Assembly: GCA_947561715.1 (NCBI GenBank)
Contig: OX387199.1
Location: 16,063,001 to 16,127,000, forward strand
Direction: 5' to 3'
DNA from: Ascidia mentula
Lineage: Eukaryota > Chordata > Ascidiacea > Phlebobranchia > Ascidiidae
Length of the DNA stretch: 64,000 bases
Positions 2,045-56,000 of this stretch are shown here, piece after piece (the first letter of the stretch is position 1; every line of letters begins with the position of its first letter). Made by a program: the position numbers and the translations under genes. Under the pieces are notes generated by a model. That model was not told the origin of the DNA, searched no databases, and saw only the letters and a list, made by a program, of their open reading frames with translations.

Positions 2045-5000
2045 TTATTGCATGAGCAACACGGAATCAAGAACATGTGTTCCATTCTCAACTCCGCCGT
2101 CTTTGAGATGTTTGGCCTTTGAACGAAGCAAGTGACCATTGACGTAATTTTCCATCAAACCCTTCTCTGACCTGAATATAGTTGAAATAATCATAAATAC
2201 CCCTAAACATTCTATCGTGCCATCAACAATTTTATCCTTGGATATAAGGAATAGATTGAAAATTTACGTATATATTTCCGACCCACTTGCTGAACAGTAT
2301 TCACCACCATATTTCATGCAATCCTATACTAAGGGATCATAATAAAGAAAAATACGCCAATGCGAGAAGCATTTTGGGAGATTACGTGAAATTAAGGTGA
2401 AAGTATTTACGATATGAATCCAATTGTTTCAAAGCAAACAATGGTGCTCGTTGGTACACGTTTGCTGTTCATGGCCCCTTAGACTGGCATGGGCCCTGGT
2501 GAGCGGCCGGGTTACGCCTCTCCCAAATTTTTTATCAGTAAATTTATGTTCCCGGACATAAAATTTATGTTCCCAGGCATACACTTTAACCCTTTCTTCT
2601 CCACGAACGCAATCTCAGTCGTGTGGCAAAGACATGCCATCAATATTCACATCGCATGCCGACGTTGGCCAACTTGTAATTTAGTTGATATTGGTATATT
2701 TTCTACAATCGTAGCAAGTAGGCGTATCGTTAACAAAACATACTCGAAAGAAATCCCGAAAATTCCCAACTCAGAAACGACTTCCTCCTTGGTGACCTTT
2801 CCATTTTTCACAAGGTAGTTTAAAGTAGAATATGGTTTAATAATCTCCATCAAAATGTAACCACTTCTTCGCTCGTCATGACCAATCTCTTTTAGTAATT
2901 GTACCATGTCATCGCCAAAAACATTGTTACCTAAATGCAAAATATATTGATATTGATGTCTGATGTCATCAACGAGCCTCTTGGAGAAGGAAGGGTTACG
3001 CTTCCACAGGATTCTAATTCTGGAATCTATTAAAAGTTAAGGGAACTGGTCTATAGTCTAATGCAGGCTATTCTGTTAAATTATTCGGCGAGTCAAAATA
3101 AAAAAAAAATTTTTTATTTATAATGCGGACGAAACGAGAATAAGACCTGTTTCATGTCAAACCAAACGCATTACCTCCGCCTTCTCGTTGTGGTTTCATC
3201 ACATACATATCTGGTTGATCCATTGCTAATTTAACAGTTGAATCTCCTTCGTCGCCCTGTTCCAAGTAAACTATAAGTTTTATGTTAGAAAACATGTTTT
3301 GAAGCAGTCCAACACAATCTATGTGGACAAACATGGGTTCATATTGTTTGGTCAATTACCAGTCATTAGAATGTCGCTGGGTATTTGATGTAATAAGTAA
3401 TATAGCTTTAATTCAAAATGACATACAAACCATTTCAAAGCAGTGCAATCTGCAAAAGGTTTTCCTCATTTTTGCTGCTGCCTTAATGTCAAGGAAACGT
3501 TCCAAAACCTTGGGTCTTGCCAACACTTCTTGCATTGTTTTCGTTCCAAACAACTGTTGTCCAGCTGACGGACATTTAATTGCACGACTATAAGTCTCTG
3601 CGCAACTTCCAAATCTGTGTACAATGTATCAGTTAAATCTTATTAGTTAGGTTCCATATTGTTGACATTTCCTTTCCATCAAACCTCATCGGAATCGTAC
3701 TGGTCAGGGTGATAACCAGTAAGGTAGTAGAGCATGGCAACCTCCTCGTTATGTCTGTAGCGTAAACACTACATATTAACAATATAAATGAACAAGCAAC
3801 GTTATTTATAAGCCTTACATCAACAGTGTTCCATCGCTGCGCACTTGCGTTTTGCCATTTAAATCATTCAATTGAAACATTCTACATGCGATTTCAGGAT
3901 TCAGGGCCTGTATTTCAAACATCAGTGAATTTTGGTCACCAAAGTAGTTAATTTCGCGTTCCATCAACAAAAATACAATCACTGCCTTCGGATTTCCATA
4001 GTACTCCCATGCATTCACCAAGCATCGCGCTGCTGATTTTGCAGCTTCGTTTTCAGGCAGTTGTTCAGCATATTGGTTTAAGTTGAACCGATTTACCACT
4101 CTTCTGTGAATACACCTCATACTCTCTGTACCAATTCCGGCGAAACTCACTCCCATCGTATTCGTTTCAACATGTTTCGGAATTGCCTTCATTGTCAAAC
4201 CATCACATTCGAACATATAATCTATTCGCGTGAAGGCGAGCTGCAGAATCTGAAATAGTGAACATATGCTTCGAAATGCACTGCAGTGCGTTTTTTGTCG
4301 GCCAATTTGTTGTAAAGGGACAAATATTACTTTTTATTAAGGGTGATGCCTGTTGTTGTTTTTTATAAATATTTTTATGTTACCTTTCTTGGGTTAGAGG
4401 ACGCCAGTTTATATATTGCCAGGAGTCTTTGAATAAATTCGTCGTGGACTCTGCAAAGAAATTTGAATTAAACGTTCAAACATTTATGTATGTTGGTGGA
4501 ATAAAGTTTTTACCTCTCAAAACAATCGACCATAAATTGTTTGTCTTCGACAACAAGATGCATAAGTTTTTGGATATCAACTTGAACCTCCTTGAGATAT
4601 TGCAGAGCTTCTTTGCTTATTGGTGTCGGGAATAAAGTAAATGGAATATGGATTACATCCTGGAACAAAAAAGTTTCTTTCGTGGACTGTTGGAAAGAGT
4701 ACAATTTTACTTTAATACACATAGTTTCTGCAGGCCTATGTGTATTCATTTCCATAGCGCACATGAGAGATTTATCTCCGAACTACATGCGATTAATTTG
4801 ATCTTCTGGCACAGTTAAATGTTGATTTTCATTTACCGTCGGCACGCCTGCTTCAACAGAGTAATAGTGATACGCCAAACAAACTTGTATTACCAAAAAC
4901 GCATCAATATCTTGACGAAACCTAAATGAATGACAAGCGAAAGGTCAGTGAAAAAAATCAACGTCAAATTGTGCCAAAAGATCAGATTCTTTGAAATTAC

Positions 5001-5216
5001 AAAATTCCTGGAGCAACAGCAGCACAATATTGCAAATAATTTTAAGTCCTTCTTCTCGAGAATGTGCTTCTGATCACTTACATTTGCTTCCTGATTTTTT
5101 GGCGTTATCGTATATAGAACACCTTCAGAGATTGCGTGATCGACTGCATTTTCAACATCAGCGTCAGTTACCCGGAGCGAAGCAATCTGATTTTGCACAA
5201 TTTCATACATTGTCAA
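2045..5216 (-). pseudogene. GSS: Glutathione synthetase copy 1, disrupted
   Basis: Nine exons on the minus strand: 5216-5082, 4659-4514, 4450-4384, 4249-3819, 3754-3685, 3614-3427, 3270-3175, 2930-2744, 2171-2045. All splice sites match those of copies 2 and 3, and the protein is eukaryotic glutathione synthetase (joins glycine to gamma-glutamylcysteine using ATP, in the cytosol). Exon 6 lacks 5 bp at about 3590 compared with both other copies. This shifts the frame and gives TTA TAG at about codons 291-292, before the glycine-rich ATP loop (REGGG) and the C-terminal HLLRSKA segment. The rest is nearly identical to copy 3, so the break is recent. A sequencing or assembly error in this 5-bp stretch is the main alternative. 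Confidence 0.85.
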
Positions 5217-6361
5217 AGATTTAATTGTTTTTCTATTACAAGTTAATGAAGCTCCAAATTGGCAAACCTATAAAATTTAATTAATCACTATTAACACAAA
5301 AGTCTTCATACTCTGGGCTTTCTGGGCCCCCTGGGTGCTGCTGACCCTTAAAGGCAAAAGCCTTTGGCTTATAATTATCAATCTCCTTTCTTCTCGTTTT
5401 GAAATTTTTCAATCTTTCAAATATTTCGTACAAGTATATTTTTACCAAGTGCCAATTGACTACCAGACTGCAGCACATGCAGCCCAGAGCAGTGAAACGA
5501 TTTCGATTCGATTATTATTTAACAGGATTTCCTTAGCGCACACATCCTTTAAAAATATTGCAACTCAGCGGTTGCCTTTGTGGCGTAGCAATCTGGCCTT
5601 TTTACACTTATTTAACTTGGTAATTATAAATTAGCTGCAGTACCGCCTTAAAAACTCAGGTTTTAGGGACTGTTAATATTATGTCATACCAAAGTATAAG
5701 GAATTTTTTCATACAGTAGAGAACCTCTAATGTTGCAGTACTGGGATGGAATATTTTAACATCTGGTTCTCACACTAGCAGCATGTCATAGGAACCGCGG
5801 AAATACAATGCTCGAAATGAAACAGAGGCCAACAACCGGTGCAAACCGGCTGAATCTCACCACTGAATGTATAAGGTTTCTTTTCTCACACGGCTTTCTG
5901 CCTCTCAGAACATTGCGTTTGAAACTTTCGATCCTGCTTCAGTGAGATACCTAAAATAATTTAGGTAAACTCTAATAATTGGAATGCGGATAACACAAGT
6001 TGATCTTAAATGCATTTTATATCTGTTAGCACATCTTTAGATGACTTACTTTAAAAAATAAATTTCCCGATTATTTAAAAGAGAGTGCAACAACTGCCTC
6101 TACCAATACGATCAAAATCTTAAATTTCCTAAAAGTATGTAGCTACATAATGAACTGTTGATATTACTTATATGCTTATGATAAGCAAAAGTGGAGCCAA
6201 TAATATGTCTCTATCTATGATGTCAAACATTTCCTGCTGCTACACTCTTATATACATTTTTTGGAAAATTGTCCTATTTTTTAAGTACGATTCCCTTCAT
6301 TAAAAACTTGCACGAAAATTGGCAAGGTTTTCAACAGCGACCAGACAAAACTTCGAGGTCT
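5217..6361. other. Upstream region of GSS copy 1
   Basis: Probable promoter and 5' untranslated DNA of the minus-strand GSS gene. An AG acceptor-like site (TTTTATAG) lies about 50 bp upstream of the GSS ATG, with a possible 5' exon further up. Open frames on both strands here differ between units 1 and 3, and the equivalent stretch is largely deleted from unit 2 (10740-10865), so it is unlikely to encode an essential protein. The same region serves copy 3 at 16089-17242. Confidence 0.4.
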
Positions 6362-6364
6362 AGC

Positions 6365-6445
6365 ATTGGTCAAGCGCCCATACCAAGAAGAAAACCTGAT
6401 CGGGATTTGTGGCCAGGATATCCTAGGTTCAAATCCCGGTGTGGT
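6365..6445 (+). repeat. tRNA-like repeat, unit 1/2 junction
   Basis: Same element as at 719-806. The A-box-like motif is at 6367-6377 and the B box GGTTCAAATCC at 6426-6436. It lies exactly at the join between units 1 and 2. Confidence 0.5.
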
Positions 6446-7602
6446 CAAAAAAAATCAGGACGCAGAACTGATGGAGAATGCCTGTCGCAAGGCACCGATG
6501 GACTACGACATCTAACAATCGAAAAATTCCGTTAGCTAGCTCTGTAATGTTTCTCCAACAATTGTGAAATTGTTTGAAACCAGTTTTTATTCGAGTTCAT
6601 ATCATTAACATCATATCATTGAAATGTGAAACCCGAATAAAGTAATGTGTACATTACATAAAAAGTAATTTTATTATTTTGTCCACAATCTTGTAAGCTT
6701 ATTACCTGCAAGACCTTCGCGGACCAATAGTGGTTTACAGTTTGGTGACCACTAGTATCGAAACACAGCACGTATTTCATTATTTCGACAACAAAATTGC
6801 GGTGAGCAAAGTTGATCACCTTTTCCTCGGGTTCCGCATGATTGCTTCCTGCAGATAGGTCAGCTAAAAACTACCTAGTGGTTTTAGGCGCCGTGTGATG
6901 TTCGCGATTGCTCGCGCTGACTCTGCACGGCTTCGGGTTCGAGCATTTTTTAGTTTGTCGACTGACTTTTGATTCAGCATGGCTGCGATGTGAGTTACCC
7001 ATAATATTAGAGTTAACTGACATGTTATTGTTTCTTTTTTGATATATAGTTTGCCAAAAGTATAAAGTGCACAAACATTTAACCCCCGTTAATAAACTTG
7101 TTTAATAACACTGTATACGACACAGTAAAATGTGGGATAAAATGTTTCATGTTTATTTCTCGTAAAACGCGCCAGAAAGTGTTGGATCCACGAAGTTGTG
7201 TAAACGTTGAAATTCGAGAACCAAAAAAAACAGGTTAATGGCGACAATTGTATTTGCGCGTTTGAGCGTGACCTTCAAATGTGCACTGATGCAATAAAAC
7301 CACAGGCAAGTTAACATGCTCCTGTCGTGGTGCCTTGTGCCATCTTGATTCAACCAAAGTAGTGTTTTTACAGTAAATTCAATTAATTCCATTTTCTTTT
7401 CTGTTTGTATCATTACTATTCATGATAGTTGCCTAAAGCGTATATACAAGCATTTCACACATGTACAAAATTGTGGTGGTGTGCTGAAACATCACTTTGT
7501 GTTAATAATATGCTGGGAAAAGATTTTTTAAGAGGTGTGTATGGTTAAGAGGTGTATGTATAAAATTTTGGTTAAAATCAGTCAAAAGCCACAACTTAAA
7601 CA

Positions 7603-10600
7603 TTATTGCATGAGCAACACGGAATCCAGAACATGTGTTCCATTCTCAACTCCGCCGTCTTTGAGATGTTTGGCCTTTGAACGAAGCAAGTGACCATTGA
7701 CGTAATTTTCCATCAAACCCTTCTCTGACCTGAATATAGTTGAAATAATCATAAATACCCCTACAATACAGTATTTACCACCATATTTCATGCAATCCTA
7801 TACTAAGGGATCATAATAAAGAAAAATACGCCATTGCGAGAAGCTTTTTGGGAGATTACGTGAAATTAAGGTGAAACTATTTACGATATGAATCCAATTG
7901 TTTCAAAGCAAACAATGGTGCTCGTGGGTTCACGGTTGCTGTTCATGGCCCCTCAGAATGGCATGGGCCCTGGTGAGCGGCCCGGTTGAGCCTGTATGGA
8001 CTTTGATTTTTTATCAGTAAATTCATGTTCCCGGACATAAAATTCATGTTCCCAGGCATACACTTTAACCCTTTCTTCTCCACGAACGCAATCCAAGTCG
8101 TGTGGGAAAGACGTGCCATCAATATTCACATCGCATGCCGACGTTGGCCAACTCATAATGTAGTTGATATTGGTATATTTTCTACAATCGTAGCAAGTAG
8201 GCTTATCGTTAACAAAACATACTCGAAAGAAATCCCAAAAATTCCCAACTCAGAAACGACTTCCTCATTATTGACCTTTCCATTTTTCACAAGGTAGTTT
8301 AAAGTAGAATATGGATTAATAATCTCCATCAAAATGTAACCACTTCTTCGCTCGTCATGACCAATCTCTTTTAGTAATTGTACCATGTCATCGCCAAAAA
8401 CATTGTTACCTAAATGCAAAATACATTGATATTGATGTCATGAAAACAACGTGCCTCTCGGAGAAGGAAGGGTTACGCTTCCACGGGATTCTAATCCTGG
8501 AATCTATTAAAAGTTAAGGGAACTGGTCCATAGTCTAATGCAGGCTATTCTGTTGAATTATTAGGCGAGTCAAAATAAAAAAATTTTTTTTATTTATAAT
8601 GCGGACGAAACGAGAATAAGACCGAGAAATGTTTCATGTCAAACCAAACGCGTTACCTCCGCCTTCTCGTTGTGGTTTCATCACATACATATCTGGTTGA
8701 TCCATTGCTAATTTAACAGTTGAATCTCCTTCGTCACCCTGTTCAAAGTAAACTATAAGTTTTATGTTAGAAAACATGTTTTGAAGCAGTCCAACACAAT
8801 CTATGTGGACAAACATGGGTTCATATTGTTTGATCAATTACCAGTCATTAGAATGTCGCTGGGTATTTGATGTAAAAAGTAACATAGCTTTAATTCAAAA
8901 TGACATACAAACCATTTCAAAGCAGTGCAATCTGCAAAAAGTTTTCCTCATTTTTGCTGCTGCCTTAATGTCAAGGAAACGTTCCAAAACCTTGGGTCTT
9001 GCCAACACTTCTTGCATTGTTTTCGTTCCAAACAACTGTTGTCCAACTGACGGACATTTAATTGCACGACTAAGTTCAAAGTCTCTTCGCAACTTCCAAA
9101 TCTGTGTACAATGTATCAATTAAATCTTATTAGTTAGGTGCCATATTGTTGACATTTCCTTTCAATCAAACCTCATCGGAATCGTATTGGTCAGGGTGAT
9201 AACCAGTAAGGTAGTAGAGCATGGCAACCTCCTCGTTATGTCTGTAGCGTAAACACTACATATTAACAATATAAATGAACAATCAACATTATTTATAAGC
9301 CTTACATCAACAATGTTCCATCGCTGCGCACTTGCGTTTTGCCATTTAAATCATTAAATTGAAACATTTTACATGCGATATCAGGATTCAGGGCCTGTAT
9401 TTCAAACATCTGTGAATTTTGGTCACCAAAGTAGTTAATTTCGCGTTCCATTAACAAAAATGCAATCACTGCCTTCGGATTTCCATAGTACTCCCATGCA
9501 TTCACCAAGCATCGCGCTGCTGATTTTGCAGCTTCGTTTTCAGGCAGTTGTTCAGCATATTGGTTTAAGTTGAATCTATTTACCACTCTTCTGTGAATAT
9601 CTCTCATACTCTCTGTACCAATTCCGGCGAAACTCACACCCATCGTATTCGTTTCAACATGTTTCGGAATTGCCTTCATTGTCAAACCATCACATTCGAA
9701 CATATAATCTATTCGCGTGAAGGCGAGCTGCAGAATCTGAAATAGTGAACATATGCTTCGAAATGCACTGCAGTGCGTTTTTTGTCGGCCAATTTGTTGT
9801 AGAGGGGGCGACATTACTTTTTATTAAGGCTGATGTCTGTTTTTTTTTTCAAGAATATTTTCTGTTACCTTTCGTGGGTTGGAAGACGCCAGTTTATATA
9901 TTGCCAGGAGTCTTTGAATAAATTCGTCGTGGACTCTGCAAATAAGTTTGAATTAAACGTTGAAACACTTCTGTTGGCGAAATAAAGTTTTCACCTCTCA
10001 AAACAATCGACCATAAATTGTTTGTCTTCGACAACAAGGTGCATAAGTTTTTGGATATCAACTTGAACCTCCTTAAGATATTGCAGAGCTTCTTTGCTTT
10101 TTGGTGTCGGGAATATAGTAAATGGAATATGGATTACATCCTGGAACAAAAAAGTTTCTTTCGTGGATTGTTGGAAAGCGCACATGGGAGATTTATCTCC
10201 GAACCACATGCGATTAATTTGATCTTCTGGCACAATTAAATGTTGATTTTCATTTACCGTCGGCACGCCTGCTTTAACAGAGTAATAGTGATACGGCAAA
10301 CAAACTTGTATTACCAAAAAACGCATCAATATCTTGATGAAACCTGGATGAATGGCAAGCGAAACATCAGTAAATAAAAATCAACGTCAAATTGTGCCAG
10401 AAGGTCATATTCTTTGAAATTACAAAATTCCTGGAGCAACAGCAACACAATATTGCGATTAATGTTAAGTCCTTCTTCTCGAGAATGTGCTTCTGGTCAC
10501 TTACATTTGCCTCCTGATTTTTTGGCGTTATCGTATAGAGAACACCTTCGGAGATTGCGTGATCGACTGCATTTTCAACATCAGCGACAGTTACACGGAG

Positions 10601-10639
10601 CGAAGCAATCTGATTTTGCACAATTTCGTACATTGTCAA
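7603..10639 (-). CDS. GSS: Glutathione synthetase copy 2
   Basis: Nine exons: 10639-10505, 10140-9995, 9935-9869, 9736-9306, 9241-9172, 9101-8909, 8752-8657, 8409-8223, 7729-7603. They sum to 1452 bases, 483 residues plus stop, close to the human enzyme (474). It makes glutathione from gamma-glutamylcysteine, glycine and ATP in the cytosol. Landmarks are VETNT (Glu144 and Asn146, the family's metal-binding pair), LFGTKTMQEVLARP in the middle, KPQREGGGN (ATP-grasp glycine loop) and the C-terminal HLLRSKAKHLKDGG. The start ATG begins exon 1, just after an AG that could be a cis- or trans-splice acceptor. It differs from copies 1 and 3 at scattered residues, for example Asp for Cys after TESMR. 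No break is seen, so it looks functional. Confidence 0.95.
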
Positions 10640-11592
10640 AGATTTAATTGTTTTTCTATTACAAGTTAATGAAGCTCCAAATTGGCAAACCTATAAAATT
10701 TAATTAATTTCAATTAACACAAAAATCTTTGCGAAGATACAGAACTGAAAAGGTGCTTAACAAAAAGGCAACCTTTCATACTCTGGGCTTTCTGGGTCCC
10801 CTAGGTGCTGACCCATCAAGGCAAAAGTCTTTGCCGGAAAATTATCAATCTCCTTTCTTCTCGCTGCAGTACCGCCTTAAAAACTCAGGTTTTAGGGACT
10901 GTTAATATTATGTCATACCAAAGTATAAGGAATTTTTTCATACAGTAGAGAACCTCTAATGTTGCAGTACTGGGATGGAATATTTTAAGATCTGGTTCTC
11001 ACACTAGCAGCATGTCATAGGAACCGCGGAAATACAATGCTCGAAGTGAAACAGAGGCCAACAACCGGTGCAAACCGGCTGAATCTCACCACTGAATGTA
11101 TAAGGTTTCTTTTCTCACACGGCTTTCTGCCTCTCAGAACATTGCGTTTGAAACTTTCGATCCTGCTTCAGTGAGATACCTAAAATAATTTAGGTAAACT
11201 CTAATAATTGGAATGCGGATAACACAAGTTGATCTTAAATGCATTTTATATCTGTTAGCACATCTTTAGATGACTTACTTTAAAAAATAAATTTCCCGAT
11301 TGTTTAAAAGAGAGTGCAACAACTGCCTCTACCAATACGATCAAAATCTTAAATTTCCTAAAAGTATGTAGCTACATAATGAACTGTTGATATTACTTAT
11401 ATGCTTATGATAAGCAAAAGTGGAGCCAATAATATGTCTCTATCTATGATGTCAAACATTTCCTGCTGCTACACTCTTATATACATTTTTTGGAAAATTG
11501 TCCTATTTTTAAATACGATTCCTTTCATTAAAAACTTGCACGAAAATTGGCAAGGTTTTCAACAGCGACCAGACAAAACTTCGAGGTCTAGC

Positions 11593-11673
11593 ATTGGTCA
11601 AGCGCCCATACCAAGAAGAAAACCTGATCGGGATTTGTGGCCAGGATATCCTAGGTTCAAATCCCGGTGTGGT
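11593..11673 (+). repeat. tRNA-like repeat, unit 2/3 junction
   Basis: Third copy of the tRNA-like element. The A-box-like motif is at 11595-11605 and the B box at 11654-11664. It lies exactly at the join between units 2 and 3 and is nearly identical to the copy at 6365. Confidence 0.5.
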
Positions 11674-12910
11674 CAAAAAAAATCTGGACGCAGAACTGAT
11701 GGAGAATCCCTGTCGCAAGGCACCGATGGACTACGACATCTAACAATCGAAAAATTCCGTGAGCTAGCTCTGTAATGTTTCTCCAACAATTGTGAAATTG
11801 TTTGAAACCAGTTTTTATTCGAGTTCATATCATTAACATCATATCATTGAAATGTGAAACCCGAATAAAGTAATGTGTACATTACATTAAAAGTAATTTT
11901 ATTATTTTATCCACAATCTTGCAAGCTTATTACCTGCAAGACCTTCGCGGACCAATAGTGGTTTACAGTTTGGTGACCACTAGTATCGAAACACAGCACG
12001 TATTTCATTATTTCGACAACAAAATTGCGGTGAGCAAAATAGAACACCTTTCTCTCGGGTTCCGCATGCTTGCTTCCTGCAGATAGGTCAGCTAAAAACT
12101 ACCTAGTGGTTTTTGGCGCCGTGTGATGTTCGCGGTTGCTCGCGCTGACTCTGCACGGCTTCGGGTTCGAGCATTTTTTAGTTTGTCGACTGACTTTTGA
12201 TTCAGCATGGCTGCGATGTGAGTTACCCATAATATTAGAGTTAACTGACATGTTATTGTTTCTTTTTTGATATATAGTTTGCCAAAAGTATAAAGTGCAC
12301 AAACATTTAACCCCCGTTAATAAACTTGTTTAATAACACTGTATACGACACAGTAAAATGTGGGATAAAATGTTTCATGTTTATTTCTCGTAAAACGCGC
12401 CAGAAAGTGTTGGATCCACGAAGTTGTGTAAACGTTGAAATTCGAGAACCAAAAAAAACAGGTTAATGGCGACAATTGTATTTGCGCGTTTGAGCGTGAC
12501 CTTCAAATGTGCACTGATGCAATAAAACCACAGGCAATGGGAAAATCTAGCCTTAAACCGCGTACGAATCTTAACTTGGCACAACACTATACCAATACTA
12601 CATGCTGTTAACTGTCAGTTAACATGCTCCTGTCGTGGTGCCTTGTGCCATCTTGATTCAACCAAAGTAGTGTTTCTACAGTAAATTCAATTAATTCCAT
12701 TTTCTTTTCTGTTTGTATCATTACCATTCATGATAGTTGCCTAAAGCGTATATACAAGCATTTCACACATGTACAAAATTGTGGTGGTGTGCTGAAACAT
12801 CACTTTGTGTTAATTATATGCTGGAAAAAGATTTTTTAAGAGGTGTGTATGGTTAAGAGGTGTATGTATAAAATTTTGGTTAAAATTAGTCAAAAGCCAC
12901 AACTTAAACA

Positions 12911-15900
12911 TTATTGCATGAGCAACACGGAATCAAGAACATGTGTTCCATTCTCAACTCCGCCGTCTTTGAGATGTTTGGCCTTTGAACGAAGCAAGTG
13001 ACCATTGACGTAATTTTCCATCAAACCCTTCTCTGACCTGAATATAGTTGAAATAATCATAAATACCCCTAAACATTCTATCGTGCCATCAACAATTTTA
13101 TCCTTGGATATAAGGAATAGATTGAAAATTTACGTATATATTTCCGACCCACTTGCTGAACAGTATTCACCACCATATTTCATGCAATCCTATACTAAGG
13201 GATCATAATAAAGAAAAATACGCCAATGCGAGAAGCATTTTGGGAGATTACGTGAAATTAAGGTGAAAGTATTTACGATAAAAATCCAATTGTTTCAAAG
13301 CAAACAATGGTGCTCGTTGGTACACGTTTGCTGTTCATGGCCCCTTAGACTGGCATGGGCCCTGGTGAGCGGCCGGGTTACGCCTCTCCCAAATTTTTTA
13401 TCAGTAAATTTATGTTCCCGGACATAAAATTTATGTTCCCAGGCATACACTTTAACCCTTTCTTCTCCACGAACGCAATCTCAGTCGTGTGGCAAAGACA
13501 TGCCATCAATATTCACATCGCATGCCGACGTTGGCCAACTTGTAATTTAGTTGATATTGGTATATTTTCTACAATCGTAGCAAGTAGGCGTATCGTTAAC
13601 AAAACATACTCGAAAGAAATCCCGAAAATTCCCAACTCAGAAACGACTTCCTCCTTGGTGACCTTTCCATTTTTCACAAGGTAGTTTAAAGTAGAATATG
13701 GTTTAATAATCTCCATCAAAATGTAACCACTTCTTCGCTCGTCATGACCAATCTCTTTTAGTAATTGTATCATGTCATCGCCAAAAACATTGTTACCTAA
13801 ATGCAAAATATATTGATATTGATGTCATGAAAACAACGAGCCTCTTGGAGAAGGAAGGGTTACGCTTCCACAGGATTCTAATTCTGGAATCTATTAAAAG
13901 TTAAGGGAACTGGTCTATAGTCTAATGCAGGCTATTCTGTTAAATTATTCGGCGAGTCAAAATAAAAAAAAAATTTTTTATTTATAATGCGGACGAAACG
14001 AGAATAAGACCTGTTTAATGTCAAACCAAACGCATTACCTCCGCCTTCTCGTTGTGGTTTCATCACATACATATCTGGTTGATCCATTGCTAATTTAACA
14101 GTTGAATCTCCTTCGTCGCCCTGTTCCAAGTAAACTATAAGTTTTATGTTAGAAAACATGTTTTGAAGCAGTCCAACACAATCTATGTGGACAAACATGG
14201 GTTCATATTGTTTGGTCAATTACCAGTCATTAGAATGTCGCTGGGTATTTGATGTAATAAGTAATATAGCTTTAATTCAAAATGACATACAAACCATTTC
14301 AAAGCAGTGCAATCTGCAAAAGGTTTTCCTCATTTTTGCTGCTGCCTTAATGTCAAGGAAACGTTCCAAAACCTTGGGTCTTGCCAACACTTCTTGCATT
14401 GTTTTCGTTCCAAACAACTGTTGTCCAACTGACGGACATTTAATTGCACGACTAAGTTCAAAGTCTCTGCGCAACTTCCAAATCTGTGTACAATGTATCA
14501 GTTAAATCTTATTAGTTAGGTTCCATATTGTTGACATTTCCTTTCCATCAAACCTCATCGGAATCGTACTGGTCAGGGTGATAACCAGTAAGGTAGTAGA
14601 GCATGGCAACCTCCTCGTTATGTCTGTAGCGTAAACACTACATATTAACAATATAAATGAACAAGCAACGTTATTTATAAGCCTTACATCAACAGTGTTC
14701 CATCGCTGCGCACTTGCGTTTTGCCATTTAAATCATTCAATTGAAACATTCTACATGCGATTTCAGGATTCAGGGCCTGTATTTCAAACATCAGTGAATT
14801 TTGGTCACCAAAGTAGTTAATTTCGCGTTCCATCAACAAAAATACAATCACTGCCTTCGGATTTCCATAGTACTCCCATGCATTCACCAAGCATCGCGCT
14901 GCTGATTTTGCAGCTTCGTTTTCAGGCAGTTGTTCAGCATATTGGTTTAAGTTGAACCGATTTACCACTCTTCTGTGAATACACCTCATACTCTCTGTAC
15001 CAATTCCGGCGAAACTCACTCCCATCGTATTCGTTTCAACATGTTTCGGAATTGCCTTCATTGTCAAACCATCACATTCGAACATATAATCTATTCGCGT
15101 GAAGGCGAGCTGCAGAATCTGAAATAGTGAACATATGCTTCGAAATGCACTGCAGTGCGTTTTTTGTCGGCCAATTTGTTGTAAAGGGACACATATTACT
15201 TTTTATTAAGGCTGATGCCTGTTGTTGTTTTTTTTTATAAATATTTTTATGTTACCTTTCTTGGGTTAGAGGACGCCAGTTTATATATTGCCAGGAGTCT
15301 TTGAATAAATTCGTCGTGGACTCTGCAAAGAAATTTGAATTAAACGTTCAAACATTTATGTATGTTGGTGGAATAAAGTTTTTACCTCTCAAAACAATCG
15401 ACCATAAATTGTTTGTCTTCGACAACAAGATGCATAAGTTTTTGGATATCAACTTGAACCTCCTTGAGATATTGCAGAGCTTCTTTGCTTATTGGTGTCG
15501 GGAATAAAGTAAATGGAATATGGATTACATCCTGGAACAAAAAAGTTTCTTTCGTGGATTGTTGGAAAGAGTACAATTTTACTTTAATACACATAGTTTC
15601 TGCAGGTCTGTGTGTATTCATTTCCATAGCGCACATGAGAGATTTATCTCCGAACCACATGCGATTAATTTGATCTTCTGGCACAATTAAATGTTGATTT
15701 TCATTTACCGTCGGCACGCCTGCTTCAACAGAGTAATAGTGATACGGCAAACAAACTTGTATTACCAAAAACGCATCAATATCTTGACGAAACCTAGATG
15801 AATGACAAGCGAAAGGTCAGTGAAAAAAATCAACGTCAAATTGTGCCAAAAGATCAGATTCTTTGAAATTACAAAATTCCTGGAGCAACAGCAGCACAAT

Positions 15901-16088
15901 ATTGCAAATAATTTTAAGTCCTTCTTCTCGAGAATGTGCTTCTGATCGCTTACTTTTGCTTCCTGATTTTTTGGCGTTATCGTATATAGAACACCCTCGG
16001 AGATTGCGTGATCGACTGCATTTTCAACATCAGCGTCAGTTACACGGACCGAAGCTATCTGATTTTGCACAATTTCATACATTGTCAA
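12911..16088 (-). CDS. GSS: Glutathione synthetase copy 3
   Basis: Nine exons: 16088-15954, 15531-15386, 15322-15256, 15118-14688, 14623-14554, 14483-14291, 14134-14039, 13796-13610, 13037-12911. They sum to 1452 bases, an uninterrupted 483-residue frame. All introns are GT-AG and phases agree throughout. Motifs: VETNT with Glu144/Asn146 for Mg-ATP, GTKTMQE, KPQREGGGN at about 374-381, ELGIFG, and HLLRSKAKHLKDGG near the C-terminus. Role: second step of glutathione synthesis. It is nearly identical to disrupted copy 1 apart from that copy's 5-bp loss, so copies 1 and 3 share the latest common ancestor in the gene body. Having two intact copies may raise enzyme dose; that is inference. Confidence 0.96.
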
Positions 16089-17242
16089 AGATTTAATTGT
16101 TTTTCTATTACAAGTTAATGAAGCTCCAAATTGGCAAACCTATAAAATTTAATTAATCACAATTAACACAAAAGTCTTTCATACTCTGGGCTTTCTGGGC
16201 CCCCTGGGTGCTGCTGACCCATAAAGGCAAAAGCCTTTGGCTGATAATTATCAATCTCCTTTCTTCTTGTTTTGAAATTTTTCAATCTTTCAAATATTTC
16301 GTGCAAGTATATTTTTACCAAGTGCCAATTGACTACCAGACTGCAACACATGCGGCCCAGAGCAGTGAAACGATTTACGATTGGACTATTATTTAACAGG
16401 ATTTCCTTAGCGCACACATCCTTTAAAAATATTGCAACTCAGCGGTTGCCTTTGTGGCGACGAGGTAGCAATCTGGCCTTTTTGCATCAATTTAACTTGG
16501 TAATTATAAATTCGTTGCAGCACCGCCTTGAAAACTCAGGTTTTAGGGACTGTTAATATTATGTCATACCAAAGTATAAGAAACTTTTTCATACAGTAGA
16601 GAACCTCTAATGTTGCAGTACTGGCATGTAATATTTTAACATCTGGTTCTCACACTACCAGCATGTCATAGGAACCGCGGAAATACAATGCTCGAAATGA
16701 AACAGAGGCCAACAACCGGTGCAAACCGGCTGAATCTCACCACTGAATGTATAAGGTTTCTTTTCTCACTCGGCTTTCTGCCTCTCAGAACATTGCGTTT
16801 GAAACTTTCGATCCTGCTTCAGTGAGATACCTAAAATAATTTAGGTAAACTCTAATAATTGGAATGCGGATAACACAAGTTGATCTTAAATGCATTTTAT
16901 ATCTGCCAGCACATCATCAGATGACGTACTTTAAAAATAAATTTCCCGACTATTTAAAAGAGAGTGCAACAACTGCCTATACCAATCCGATCAGAATTCC
17001 TAAATTTCCTTAACGTGCGTAGTTAAATAATGAACTGTTGATATTACTTATATGCTTATGATAAGCAAAAGTGGAGCCAACAATGTGTCTCTATCTATGA
17101 TGTCAAACATTTCCTGCTGCTACACTCTTATATACATTTTTTGGAAAATTGTCCTATTTTTTAAGTACGATTCCTTTCATTAAAAACTTTCACGAAAATT
17201 GGCTGCGTTTTAAACAGCGACCAGACAAAACTTCGAGGTCTA

Positions 17243-41000: not shown

Positions 41001-44000
41001 CGGAGGACAAACTTGATAAAAATGACATAACCATTCTAATAAAAAAAACTGGTGAGTTATGCTACCACATAAAAATGTAATTCAAACATATATTAGTGGT
41101 AATAAGCTATAAATCGACCAACACAAAGTATAATAAGATCACATAACAGAAACAGCGAACCTGCAAGACTCGAATCGCCTGGTCGAGAACAGATTTGAGA
41201 TCAGTGACGTAATCAGTAGAAGGCAGTGGAGTCCGACACAAGTGGGCGTAAAGGAGCAGAAGTGTTTTGGTGTGTGGCGAGTCGTAAGTAACTGCGTCCA
41301 CTTTCACCGGTAGGTCATTGGCAAGTTCGCTGCACACGAAATAATGACGTCATAATGGGAAGTGTGACGTACACAATTCACGGGGAAGTACCTGTTGACG
41401 GCGTCTTCGTTGTGGCGCACCGGAAGTTCATGAAATTCCTGAGCGTCGGAAAGAAGTTGAAGGATGTCTTCAATCGAAGAGTCGGGCTTCATTTTTTCGC
41501 CAAGCATTCTGGAAAATGAAATAATTCAGTCTTGTGGTATTCACTTGATTTTATTAAAATAAGCCAGTGCAGGAAAAATAGGTTCGTTTTCCCGTTTAAG
41601 TCCTACTTGAGGCCCCTTTGGAATAAGAATAGGTAAACTCGTGAATTTCAACATATTGACGTTTGGAAAAACATCCACGAATTATTGGGTAAATGGTTTT
41701 ATTTGGGTTGTCCATTTAACTTTCATTGCAAAGCAAGGACTGATCTCAAAAAATCCTAATAAGTGAATCAAAATCCTAATATTAAATCTTGCTGATCTAA
41801 TCTTCAACGTATTTTCAATTAGAAATCTAAAAGCTTACCTAATGGTCAAGTGACTGAGGTAGTAGAAAGATGCGATTCTTCCACCTCCCGTCGCCTCCAA
41901 CAAGCTCTCATCTTCATAATCGAGTTCCTTCAAACATCCGGAGGTTCGCAAATCCACCACAGCCTTCTCCAGCAACTGGGAGAGGAAAATGTTCACCGAG
42001 TCGTGATCTACAAAAATTTTAGTATTAATTACATTCAAATCGCAATGAAGGGTACTGAAAAAGCAGAAAGTGTTTGTAGTGCCACGATCCTAAGACGAAT
42101 CATAGTTGTCAGCGGGAGATCTACGCTTTATACAAACATTTCTGTAAAAGCAGAAAGGTTTGCGAAGCCTGTAAACGTTAATGATCTTGATTAGGTATGC
42201 ACCGAAAGTTCGGTTTGCCTAATTTATTCGACCGAAACTAAGGTGTTCGCAATTATTCGGTTTCGGCCGAATATTTCTGCAAAATTCGGCCGAAACCGAA
42301 ACTTTTTTACTGCATGTAACGCTGATACGCAAAGTTTAGAAAAGGTTAAAATATTTGTTTAAATTGTACGAATATGTTCGTTTCATTTGTTCACTTACAC
42401 AGAAATGATAAAAATCAACTTTAAGCAGTTGGTACAGAAGACGAGGTTATTCTTCAAGCGCCAAAAAGGCTGTATGATAGGATAAGATCTAATCCAGTAT
42501 ATGTTTTGTTTAAATTTATTGCGTATGAAGAGATGGATACCAAAATTAGTTTCGGTTTATTCGGCCGAATTAATTCGGCAACTTTTGCCGAATATTCGGT
42601 TTCGGCCGAATATAAAAAGAGCTGTTTCGGTGCATCACTAATCTTGATACGATAGCTGTGATCGTCAAGTAAAGACCGGCTTCGCAGTTGGGCGATCATG
42701 CTTTGCATGAAACATTGCTGCGTTGTAAAAGCAGAAAGGTTTGCGAGACTTATATAAATAAAGCAATAAGATAATTTAGTATCATGGTTGGACTTTTAAA
42801 CAGCTGCAATGCTGTGCACTTGTGTTTTTCAAGTACACTAGAGTTTGATTTGACTCCGCTACGGATAAAGTAGGCGGTGACCAACCTTTTCCTTCTCACA
42901 TGTCATTTTTAACTTTTATTTTAGACGATGCGCCACATCCACCCCCATTTAATCTTTCAACGTATGTTTATTTTAGATTAGACTTAATTTCAGTAAAAAG
43001 TTTCCCAAATTTCTGACATTTTTTTCTGGCAATCAGTTATCACAATTTTGTTATGTACAGGCCTGCTTTGCAATGCCTTTTCCAATCTGTGAGGTATATG
43101 GCCCTGCTTGTAATCATGCAATGTGCCACTTTTGGCACGTGCGCCATGAATTGGCCAGTCCTGGAATAAGTTAATGATAACCTATGCTGGGTTTTGATTA
43201 CTGAAACACAAAAAAACTGCATTAAATAAAACGATACTAACCGACAGTTCGAGACATTCTTTGAATCAAATCAAAGTTACTAAAAATTAGAGAATAATTT
43301 TTTTCTGCATTTTGGTCGCATCACTGTTCCAAAAGCACGTTAAAATGCTGACCCGTGTCCTGAAGTTCATAATATGTTGGGTTCATGAGCAGACGGCGAA
43401 AGAAGTAAGTCCATGTCAAGTAATCCATGGCTTCCTGCTTGTTAGCGATTGTTCCGGCGACAATCTCGGCGTTGAGATGATCTTGAAGCACCTGCACAGA
43501 AACAGTTCGGTGATATTTTTGCATTAGTTTCTTGGTGAGTAACAACTATCAAAATTGTTAAATTCGGGGCAACAAAACAGCTTATTCGTGTTAACCAAAC
43601 AGTAATAATTAAATATATATTTTTCTTGCCGTAAACGTGATAACCACCAAACAAGCACCCAACTTGTGTAGATTGAAATATTTTAATTAAGGGATGATCA
43701 GTTTTTGGATTTTGTCAGGTTTTTAGTCATATATACAAAGTTGAGACAATAAAATAATTTCAGTGAGCTGCAGAAAGATGGCCACTGTTTCGACCTATAA
43801 GGTCTCATAACAGTATTGTCGGCAAAGTCGTCTAGAAGAGTCACACCAAGCTGCACCGATGAGACTTTAGTCTGCAGCTCATAGAAAAAAATTTAGTGTA
43901 TGCAACAAACTTTTGCAATCCTTTTGGCTACTGGACTTCTACAATATATTTTCCTCGGAAAGGGGCAGAGCTTTAAAAGTGTAAATGGTAAAATAAAGAA

Positions 44001-53000: not shown

Positions 53001-56000
53001 CCTTGATGAGACCTTGGGAGAAGAGCTTTTCCACAAGAGTTCGATCGCTTCTCAACATCCCGGCGTGGTGGACTCCCAGTCCGGAGGTGAAGAGCTCCTT
53101 TAACTCTCGGTTTCGGGATCTCTGCATCTGCAGGAAGAGGAAAAAAACGTTTTCAAAGTTGTCAAATTTGTTACATTTCGGAAAAAAATCAGTGAGCTAC
53201 ATACAGATGGCCACTGTTTCGAACTAGAAGGTCTCATCAGTGCAGTTTGGTGTGACTGTTAGACGACTTTGGAAGTCTTTGCTTGGCCGTTTGATCGACA
53301 AAGTCGTCTAACAGTCATACCAAACTGCACTGATGAGACCTTCTAGTTCGAAACAGTGGCCATCTGTATGTATCTCGCTGTAAACATATATTGTTTGCTC
53401 CACTTGCTTATATATAGGAAAAAAGTTTGAATGTAGTTTTTTGCAGGGTTGTTTGTTTTGACTCATGTCACTGAAAAGCGCCCTTATTGTCAGTAAAATT
53501 TAAACAAACATAGATGAATATAGAACTTATAAAAACGTCACAACTTCAACATAGAGCACGTTCCTTATACAGTAACTGACAGACATAACCCAGTACACCA
53601 GGAGTGAAATTTAATACAGACGTTAGTAGAACAACGCAGAAATCTTTCAAGCTGTCGCAAGGCAGAAGCGCAATCACAGTCCGCATGCAGCTTGGCTGCG
53701 ATGACAGTGAACCTAACGCTTGTAAAATGTATTTTTATGCGTTTATCAAGGTAACTTGGTTTGATGCACTGTAAATACACTGGTGGTGTAGCATAACGTT
53801 GTAACGAAAATAGTGTTGCTAACCGGTTTAGTGATGTTAGTTTTGTGTAAAGGTAAGTTTTGGAGTTCTCCTAAAATAAGCGTACAACGAACCCGAAAAC
53901 GTGTATAAAAACGGGTAACACCTACAAATGTTCTAGAATAGACCGAGCATTTCACCTTTTGTTCTGCCTGGTTGTATCCCTCCATCGTCTGGCAGGAGAA
54001 CTTATGAGTTTCGGTATTTTTTCGAGCAATTTCAAGCAAGGATTGACCGGTTCGAACCGTTGCCATGCGAGCATGCACGAATACCAGAACCTGACAAGGA
54101 AGTAAACCTGTTTAAGAGCAACAACCCTACTTACAATTTATAAAAAATATGTTTTCAACGTTCACTCGCTTTAGGCACAAAAAATATGGAATATTCGTTG
54201 AAAGTCTCACCATAGGGCATTTTTACAATATTCAAATTCGGCCGAATCGGTGTTTGACCGCAAATTCTGCATGAAATATGTTTAACTTAAAGAAAAAAAA
54301 ACAGCGTTCGGCTTTGCGCATGATCGTCAGCGTTTATGCACGAAAATTCGAATTGACGTAAAAACACACAAGAGAATTTACGACACCGAATCCAAACCTT
54401 TCCTACGTTGAAGTTACCCAACATTTTCCGAGTATATCTGGTAGTTTAACCGGATATATTTCACCAGAAGTTGGAAAAATAAACAAAGAAAAAACCTGGT
54501 TATCGTTGTCCAGGTTTTCGGTGACAATTTCGTAACAAACTTCGTCCATGTCCTGACGTTGTTGCATCATACTGCGAGCTTTCACTCCAACAAACGTTTG
54601 TTGAAGAGGAACAGGACGAAACCGACCGTCGAAGAAAAACAAACCCTTGTGTCTGGAGGTGAACATGAAGTAGAAGTCAATAGTCGGAAAGTACTAATAC
54701 TATCATGCTGAAAGGTTTTCCATATCAGGTCGAGGGGGCCCTGCAGCAAGGGTCGGGAACCTTTTCGGCGAAGGGAACTATAAAAGCTACCTATTTTTAA
54801 TTGTATTTCTGTGAGATACAATATTTTTTAACGATTGGTAAAAAAGTTCAAGCGAAAAATCTAAGTTGGAAAATTACAGAAAAAGTTTTATTTGTAACAA
54901 TCGTGCTAAGAAATTAGATTTGTCTGCGAACCTGAAGCCGTCATCAAAAGAGCCACATCTGGCTCGCGAGCCATAGGTTCCCGACCACTGCACTGCAGTT
55001 TTAACTATAAACTTTACAGAATAAATGCACTTGGTTTCTTTGAAAGAAACAATTGTGTGAGATGGGTTGGCCAAGTTTAAACGTTCATCAGCAAATGCGA
55101 ATTTATACCAGTTTCAATCCTATTGCAAAAAATCATGATGCTAGTAATATAAATTTTGTGAGCTGCATACAGACGGCCACTGTTTCGACCTATAAGGTCT
55201 CATCAGTGCAGCTTGGTGTGATTATGGACTATTGTAATAAGTGATTCATAGCTTTTCTGTACAGGTAAAACACAGCGCTGATTGATTTCTTTTTGAAATG
55301 ATGTCGGGGTTCGAATTAGAAGCTCGCAATTCGCAAATTGAAGCAGATTATAAGGCGCCGCATCCTTCTTTATCTATTCATTCGCACACGAAACAAACGC
55401 TGATGAAAACAATATTGTAAACTTTTCTTGGCAATGTAAACGACTATTTTCTTTCAAACCTCGTATTTTATCAAGCCTCTATTGCGCAATAAATACTTAA
55501 AAATGGAATGATGGAGAAGAATTACGTATCAAATATTGAGTCAACGAGTTTAAAACAGCAGGTTTTAAGCGTAATGCACAATCGCGTACTAAGCAAAATT
55601 TAAGTATTAGAATTTAGGTTGGTAACGTTTTTGCGATCTGTTTTTTTTACCGCTAATTCGAACCCTGGCATGTCAAACAGTTATATATGTTACGGATGAA
55701 ACTTGTCCAATATGTTTCACGAACGGACTACAAAACAATTAACATCTACAACAACTTACGGGCTGACTCTTAGAAATCTGGCGACATCGATGTAATTTGG
55801 TAAAGTAGCGGAGAGTCCAACAATTCGTATCATCGTCTGCTGTGTTTCTACCTTGAATCACATCAGACAGTTAAATTAACAGAATTATTAATGTGGTATA
55901 TTTAACAGATTATTTGATTTAGCATGGAAAATGTCCTGAAAATCCAAAATGTTTCAAAACGATTTGTTTAGCTGAATTTTTTTATTTCGCTTGCATACAC

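What the first reader, a model, noticed from the sequence alone, without database searches (positions are those of the whole stretch)
55161..55213. A complete type I hammerhead ribozyme inside an ASCC3 intron, in sense
All invariant core bases (CTGATGA, GAAA, GTA cleavage triplet) and three uninterrupted stems (7, 4 and 4 bp) are present in 53 nt. If active it would cut the ASCC3 pre-mRNA inside an intron. Hammerheads are known in animal satellites, retrozymes and Penelope-like elements, so the motif class is known; this copy and its host intron are the new part.
Basis: partly seen in the sequence, partly recalled or inferred. Interest (0 to 1): 0.85.

Follow-up and report, generated by a model that had tools for sequence, protein, structure and literature searches.

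The report
Truncated ribozyme retroelement in ASCC3 intron
The self-cutting RNA motif found in this sea-squirt gene is one shortened copy of a mobile element present in well over a thousand places in the genome, and the ends of its relatives carry the same kind of insertion scars as Penelope-like retrotransposons, which is evidence for what moves such elements.

Summary
The motif is real: a 53-nt hammerhead on the minus strand at 55213-55161, in sense inside a 1.1-kb ASCC3 intron. It is not unique. A 32-base core pattern matches exactly at 1,384 places in this ascidian-code genome (reversed control 0), some in 285-bp tandem arrays, so it belongs to an animal non-LTR retrozyme family. The intron copy is a roughly 97-bp, 5'-truncated insertion with an imperfect 10/12 target duplication. 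Rfam scores it below the curated cut-offs and a misfold is equally stable, so activity is unproven and an effect on ASCC3 unsupported.

The stronger result concerns mobilisation. Mixed-strand retrozyme insertions are head-to-head with 3' ends outward and pair one short 3' end (+5 to +16 after the cleavage site) with one long end (+33 to +48): 16 of 16 pairs on contig C1 and 15 of 15 genome-wide clusters with both ends listed (3 shared). Penelope-like elements (PLEs) of the same genome show the same architecture in 10 of 10 pairs examined. That matches the published PLE "tail" and both-strand priming, and supports PLE machinery inserting retrozymes, which the literature I saw offers only as a candidate.

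The parts
55161..55213 (-). type I hammerhead motif; cleavage predicted between 55168 and 55167
   Evidence: sequence; target fold and energy; 1,384 genomic matches of the core pattern
55132..55228 (-). 97-bp single retrozyme insertion (ends uncertain by a few bases), 5'-truncated 15 nt upstream of stem I, with a long 3' end
   Evidence: similarity of genomic copies spans about 55145-55232 in many matches; ends placed by the target duplication
55120..55131 (.). target-site duplication, low side (CTATTGCAAAAA)
   Evidence: 10 of 12 match to the high side; a match this good at this spacing occurs at 0.026 of 2,000 random window positions
55229..55240 (.). target-site duplication, high side (CTATTGTAATAA)
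54653..55759 (-). ASCC3 intron holding the insertion
   Evidence: exon translations, GT donor and AG acceptor; exons against 8alz
53192..53376 (.). second insertion of the family, head-to-head pair of hammerhead copies (left minus, right plus); target duplication not resolved by script
43750..43869 (.). third, more decayed head-to-head insertion of the family; target duplication not resolved

Best explanation
The motif is the ribozyme of a non-autonomous retrotransposon (animal non-LTR retrozyme, 285-bp unit in its main subfamily) that landed in the ASCC3 intron and was 5'-truncated. In the life cycle, multimeric transcripts are cut by the hammerhead into units (inferred), which are probably ligated into circles (inferred from the literature). 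A Penelope-like reverse transcriptase/GIY-YIG endonuclease then cuts both target strands about 12-15 bp apart (shown as target duplications; the enzyme is inferred) and primes reverse transcription on both strands (inferred from the head-to-head structure). One strand starts at a site just 3' of the hammerhead and the other 21-36 nt further on (shown as one short and one long 3' end per insertion). The two cDNAs meet in the middle, giving head-to-head inserts, and repeated rounds on the template give tandem units (inferred). The intron copy itself is most likely a passenger with weak or no cleavage activity (inferred).
For: Family: 1,384 exact matches of the core pattern against 0 in the control; tandem 284-286-bp units. 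Loose core CTGANGAN{8,24}CGAAAC: 5,833 against 294 control (this also counts PLE hammerheads). Head-to-head: 16 of 16 mixed-strand clusters on C1 and 21 of 22 among the listed genome-wide matches. Target duplications: score 11 or more in 13 of 17 pairs against 5 of 272 mismatched pairs. One short and one long end: 16 of 16 C1 pairs (3 of them rest on weak duplications, and two couples are segmental duplicates) and 15 of 15 clusters on six contigs with both ends listed (three shared with C1). PLEs of the same genome: 121 GIY-YIG matches; one 889-aa frame carries both RVT_1 (E 3.3e-10) and GIY-YIG (E 2.5e-06); neighbours within 10 kb are 17 -+, 0 +-, 6 ++, 1 --. 10 of 10 PLE pairs examined (of those 17) have exact 12-14-bp duplications and one short and one long end, null maximum 10 in 90 mismatched pairs. 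Single-hammerhead insertions: 15 of 28 with a usable duplication begin with an inverted remnant of the 3' end, 14 of the 15 of the class opposite to their own 3' end. The published PLE mechanism has both-strand cleavage and extension and two internal start sites that define the tail (PMC11167929, parts 1-2 of 4 read), and PLE copies have a 31-bp tail on one of the inverted pLTRs, head-to-head repeats and 8-10-bp duplications (PMC3846280, passages).
Against: No RNA or protein data; cleavage, circles and PLE action on this RNA are inferred. No PLE with the same tail sequence as the retrozymes was found among the PLE loci held (L053-L064, L103-L122); the blast similarities seen look like separate retrozyme insertions nearby (judged by eye for L054 and L106; L061 and L113 not inspected). 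LINEs were not examined as a contrast. Arms of the same insertion often differ: in 7 of 16 C1 pairs by 11-18 of about 85-91 bases, some because arms are joined close to the hammerhead, so one shared template is not general. 13 of 28 single insertions show no inverted remnant in the script, and the intron copy shows none either (by eye); its own duplication is imperfect (10/12). One genome-wide cluster (C70:6587127) is ++--++. Rfam hammerhead models score below gathering. In the lizard PLE the authors found no difference in start site between the two strands in vitro (PMC11167929), whereas here the two ends differ in every resolved pair.
Confidence: 0.8

Rival explanations
1. The intronic hammerhead is functional in ASCC3: it cuts the pre-mRNA in the intron and tunes splicing or expression.
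For: In sense, core bases intact, inside an intron.
Against: One of more than a thousand dispersed copies, truncated at the 5' end, two further insertions in this window; misfold of equal energy. Sense orientation alone has even odds.
Confidence: 0.05
2. The elements are foldback DNA transposons (MITE-like) whose inverted ends happen to hold hammerhead-like sequence.
For: Some copies are palindromic and have target duplications.
Against: Arm lengths and central joints vary, the two ends differ by a tail, units repeat in tandem, and 64 of 80 C1 clusters hold a single hammerhead copy. These are retrotransposon features. No transposase was searched for.
Confidence: 0.04
3. Retrozymes are inserted by a LINE-type element with twin priming rather than by PLEs.
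For: LINEs can leave inverted 5' segments (recalled); the 2020 retrozyme paper leaves LINEs and PLEs both open (PMC7229834, discussion read).
Against: Twin priming starts at arbitrary internal positions (recalled), whereas here the ends fall in two narrow zones, as in the PLEs of the same genome. LINEs were not examined here.
Confidence: 0.09
4. The motif is a chance match of short conserved bases.
For: Below the Rfam gathering score.
Against: 1,384 matches against 0 reversed. Cleavage triplet GUC in 89 of 99 and all 7 stem I 3' bases in 90 of 99 copies at the best-matching position, neither being part of the search pattern.
Confidence: 0.01

Closest known systems
Animal non-LTR retrozymes (Cervera and de la Pena 2020, PMC7229834; sections 13, 14, 17 and passages seen)
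   Same: Type I hammerhead in short tandem repeats of 150-450 bp (here 285), more than a thousand motifs, target duplications longer than 4 bp, co-existence with PLEs.
   Different: Stem II loop of only 3 nt; head-to-head insertions with one short and one long end, which the main text of that paper does not seem to mention ('inverted' and 'orientation' occur 0 times; supplements not seen). No RNA evidence here.
Penelope-like elements with minimal hammerheads (PMC11167929, PMC3846280; also PMC7761336, passages; Cervera and de la Pena 2014 and Lunse 2017 seen only as references, not held)
   Same: Head-to-head arrays, tail of about 30-40 bp on one end, target duplications of 8-14 bp, hammerhead upstream of the 3' ends.
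   Different: No RT or endonuclease coding in a 285-bp unit; hammerhead stem III is a closed hairpin instead of the apparently loopless ACGU/AGCU type in this genome's PLEs (read by eye).
Intronic hammerheads of amniotes (de la Pena and Garcia-Robles 2010, seen as a reference only)
   Same: Hammerhead in an intron.
   Different: Their title calls them ultraconserved; this one is a copy of an abundant repeat.

Membership tests
Hammerhead ribozyme, type I | Invariant core CUGANGA...GAAA with NUH cleavage triplet and three stems, stem I open | tested here: met
   sequence and target fold
Hammerhead ribozyme, type I | Score above Rfam gathering threshold | tested here: not met
   Hammerhead_3 24.8 of 48.5; RAGATH-1 17.8 of 56.3; other family copies at best 29.1 of 56.3
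Hammerhead ribozyme, type I | Self-cleavage in vitro or in vivo | not testable with these tools
   no RNA data
Animal non-LTR retrozyme | Hammerhead in short tandem repeats of about 150-450 bp in many copies | tested here: met
   285-bp units in arrays
Animal non-LTR retrozyme | Target-site duplications larger than 4 bp | tested here: met
   13 of 17 pairs at score 11 or more, lengths 12-15 bp (17 with a mismatch in one)
Animal non-LTR retrozyme | Circular and linear unit-length RNA | not testable with these tools
   circular fold of one unit is stable (-91.4 kcal/mol, z -4.3 against 60 mononucleotide shuffles), which is no proof of circles; in that fold stems I and II form but stem III does not
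Animal non-LTR retrozyme | No coding capacity and no LTR, PBS or PPT | not tested
   the 285-bp size leaves no room for an RT; PBS and PPT not searched
Mobilisation by Penelope-like elements | Head-to-head insertions | tested here: met
   16 of 16 mixed clusters on C1, 21 of 22 among listed genome-wide matches
Mobilisation by Penelope-like elements | Tail: two alternative 3' ends about 30-40 bp apart | tested here: met
   ends at query 56-68 (20) and 77-98 (30), none between; one of each in 15 of 15; spacing in C1 pairs 21-36 bp, in PLE pairs 27-43 bp
Mobilisation by Penelope-like elements | PLE in the same genome with RT and GIY-YIG, and a matching RNA signal | tested here: inconclusive
   RVT_1 and GIY-YIG in one 889-aa frame, 121 GIY-YIG matches; no shared tail sequence identified

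The most novel reading that the evidence does not exclude
A PLE insertion complex always uses both of two adjacent start sites, one per target strand, and retrozymes carry their own copy of this two-site signal. A single circular retrozyme RNA can then serve both strands at once and be copied round and round from both, giving the short/long ends and, in some arrays, the identical units in left and right arms. Retrozymes would thus be the SINEs of Penelope-like elements, and their genomic arrays a frozen record of circular-RNA-templated, two-sided target-primed reverse transcription.
Probability: 0.3. Interest if true: 0.8.

Novelty: new variant of a known kind. Interest (0 to 1): 0.62.

Why it matters
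Which enzyme inserts animal retrozymes has been open; in the papers I saw PLEs are named only as a strong candidate, because the two share hammerheads and tandem copies and co-exist. A shared, specific insertion scar in one genome turns that into a testable statement. It also offers a clean readout of the little-understood PLE insertion mechanism: short non-coding templates, many insertions, both end zones mapped.

Tried and rejected
Rfam scans gave microRNA-like hits at 53224-53345; I take these as reflecting the palindrome, not a microRNA. The idea of one shared template for both arms was tested: arrays L042 and L046 support it (0-3 differences per 285 within; 3-10 between arrays), but array L043 does not (4-7 within, 3-7 to L046), and 7 of 16 C1 pairs have clearly different arms (11-18 differences). 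PLE arms (0-2 substitutions within an insertion) say nothing, since copies of different insertions of one family also differ by only 0-4. My odds for the single-template reading were lowered to 0.3 on recounting this. PLE duplications by unconstrained search were misled by an internal palindrome in two of ten pairs, and the null of that search was too high to help (95th percentile 13); anchoring the search at the divergence point resolved all ten. The anchored script stopped with an error on retrozymes; a window after the cleavage site was used instead. The window pair 53240/53330 stays unresolved: its best duplication, in poly-A, does not fit the short/long rule. The duplication threshold for single insertions is weak (null 95th percentile 11). 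Of 33 of 64 singles that passed, the script flagged 8 as self-matches; I dropped 5 by judgement and kept 3, flagged only because a reference string contains their own flank. Of the 15 remnants, 11 match over 12 bases and 4 over 8. A Pfam check of PLE frames first failed and was done later on another, open frame.

Full report
OBSERVATION. The minus strand of 55161-55213 spells a hammerhead with all core bases, 7-, 5- and 4-bp stems and a GUA cleavage triplet. In the window a core pattern occurs three times, against none expected from 100 shuffles. ASCC3 lies on the same strand, and the motif sits in an intron from 55759 to 54653, so 'in sense' is right. Rfam's curated thresholds are not reached. 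The 53-mer has a competing fold of equal energy. In the main subfamily A the target fold is less likely still (probability 0.014), while for one representative each of subfamilies B and C the hammerhead fold is the minimum-energy fold.

IT IS A REPEAT. A 113-base query gave 49 matches from 40 scored of 1,213 candidates, and an exact 32-place core pattern gave 682 + 702 places with 0 control matches. Three main subfamilies (A, B, C; my labels, one representative each compared) share the hammerhead strands exactly or nearly so (stem I strands 7/7 and 7/7, core plus stem II 22-24 of 24). They differ in the 103 bases upstream (58-77% alignment identity), in the tail (50-65%) and, between A and B/C, in stem III, which in B and C is longer. 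The core was part of the search pattern, so its conservation is partly by selection of hits. The cleavage triplet (GUC in 89 of 99) and the stem I 3' strand (7 of 7 in 90 of 99) were not. The intron copy has GUA. Units of 284-286 bp stand in tandem. The mitochondrial COX1 reads with AGR as glycine, i.e. an ascidian tunicate (by eye).

THE INTRON COPY. Similarity to other copies ends near 55132 and 55228-55232. Twelve-base words at 55120-55131 and 55229-55240 match at 10 of 12 (chance 0.026). I read it as a single, 5'-truncated insertion with the long type of 3' end, old enough to have lost two matches of its duplication.

HOW THE FAMILY INSERTS. I cut out 98 of the 100 places listed, all on contig C1 (one further -+ pair was left out), and found 108 copies in 80 clusters: 64 single, 16 of mixed strand, all 16 with minus copies left and plus copies right. 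Placing both ends by target duplication, 13 of 17 pairs (16 on C1 plus one in the window) score 11 or more, against 5 of 272 mismatched pairs. In all 16 C1 pairs one end lies 5-16 nt and the other 33-48 nt after the cleavage site, 21-36 nt apart. Three of these rest on weak duplications, two couples are segmental duplicates of each other, and the window pair 53240/53330 is unresolved. A genome-wide query with one whole 285-bp unit (40 of 2,045 candidates scored) listed 150 of 186 matches, which form 40 clusters, 22 of mixed strand: 21 divergent, 1 complex. All 15 clusters with both ends listed have one short and one long end, on six contigs, three of them shared with the C1 set; the other 7 mixed clusters lack one end in the list. 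End positions are bimodal (20 at 56-68 and 30 at 77-98 on the query, none between). Among 28 single insertions with a usable duplication, 15 start with an inverted piece of the 3' end, in 14 of the class opposite to their own 3' end; 13 show none. So many single copies are two-ended too.

THE PLEs OF THE SAME GENOME. A GIY-YIG search found 121 matches (150 of 382 candidates scored). An 889-aa frame from a tandem array with a spacing of 2,870 bp carries RVT_1 and GIY-YIG. Neighbouring matches within 10 kb are 17 -+, 0 +-, 6 ++, 1 --. I cut out the outer ends of 10 of the 17 divergent pairs. All 10 have exact 12-14-bp target duplications and one short and one long end, the long one 27-43 bp longer; 90 mismatched pairs reach at most 10. 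AT content of the duplications is 76.6% (13 retrozyme) and 76.4% (10 PLE) against 62.4% in the window. Several PLE loci also carry minimal hammerhead-like motifs downstream of the endonuclease (read by eye).

COMPARISON WITH THE LITERATURE. For a lizard PLE, purified protein cleaves and extends both target strands and starts reverse transcription at two internal sites that define the genomic tail; the authors saw no difference of start site between strands (PMC11167929, parts 1-2 of 4 read). Rotifer PLEs show head-to-head inverted repeats, a 31-bp tail optionally on one of the inverted pLTRs and 8-10-bp duplications, and can move unrelated DNA flanked by their terminal sequences (PMC3846280, passages); that paper explains the inversions by self-priming. 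Animal retrozymes were described as tandem repeats, with PLEs a 'strong candidate' for mobilisation (PMC7229834, sections 13, 14 and 17 and passages); a curation guide says they 'may rely on PLEs' (PMC8969392, passages). Searches for retrozyme with head-to-head (0 papers), hammerhead with inverted repeat and Penelope (8 papers, listing only), retrozyme with Penelope since 2021 (7 papers; of these only PMC8969392 was opened) and hammerhead with ascidian or tunicate (2 and 5 papers; PMC8704543 opened) showed me no report of this insertion structure in retrozymes. These searches cover an open-licence library only, and three key papers are not held. One tunicate genome paper counts 9 type I hammerhead loci (PMC8704543, passages).

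TEMPLATE. In array L042 the left-arm unit and a right-arm unit are identical over 285 bases, and within-array differences (0-3 in L042 and L046) are smaller than most between arrays (3-10), while L043 is ambiguous at 4-7. In the 16 C1 pairs the 3' ends lie downstream of the cleavage site, so the template was not a unit ending at the cut: circles or uncut multimers fit. Later gene conversion between arms could also homogenise them, and 7 of 16 C1 pairs have clearly different arms.

VERDICT. The intron copy is most likely an ordinary passenger. The family gives specific, countable evidence that PLE machinery inserts retrozymes, and a rule (one short, one long end) that can be tested in vitro and in other animals.

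Noticed in passing
window 53192-53376 and 43750-43869: Two further head-to-head insertions of the same retrozyme family; Rfam matches the first palindrome weakly to a microRNA precursor (MIR821, 45.3 bits, gathering 249), which I take as an artefact.
   Followed up: partly
window about 2500-16500: ORF lengths repeat at a spacing of about 5.4 kb (172 aa at 3815, 9302 and 14684), suggesting a tandemly repeated segment.
   Followed up: no
L054, L055, L056, L058, L063: Hammerhead-like motifs downstream of PLE endonuclease frames with apparently loopless ACGU/AGCU stem III, as reported for dimeric PLE hammerheads (recalled); read by eye only.
   Followed up: partly
G000:C70:6587127-6588221: The only listed retrozyme cluster with a +- junction (++--++), possibly one insertion beside another.
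   Followed up: no
G000:C1:1396738, 1492006 and 1693403: Copies of one insertion sharing the target duplication ATATTTTTAACT(TC), i.e. apparent segmental duplication of a locus carrying the element.
   Followed up: no
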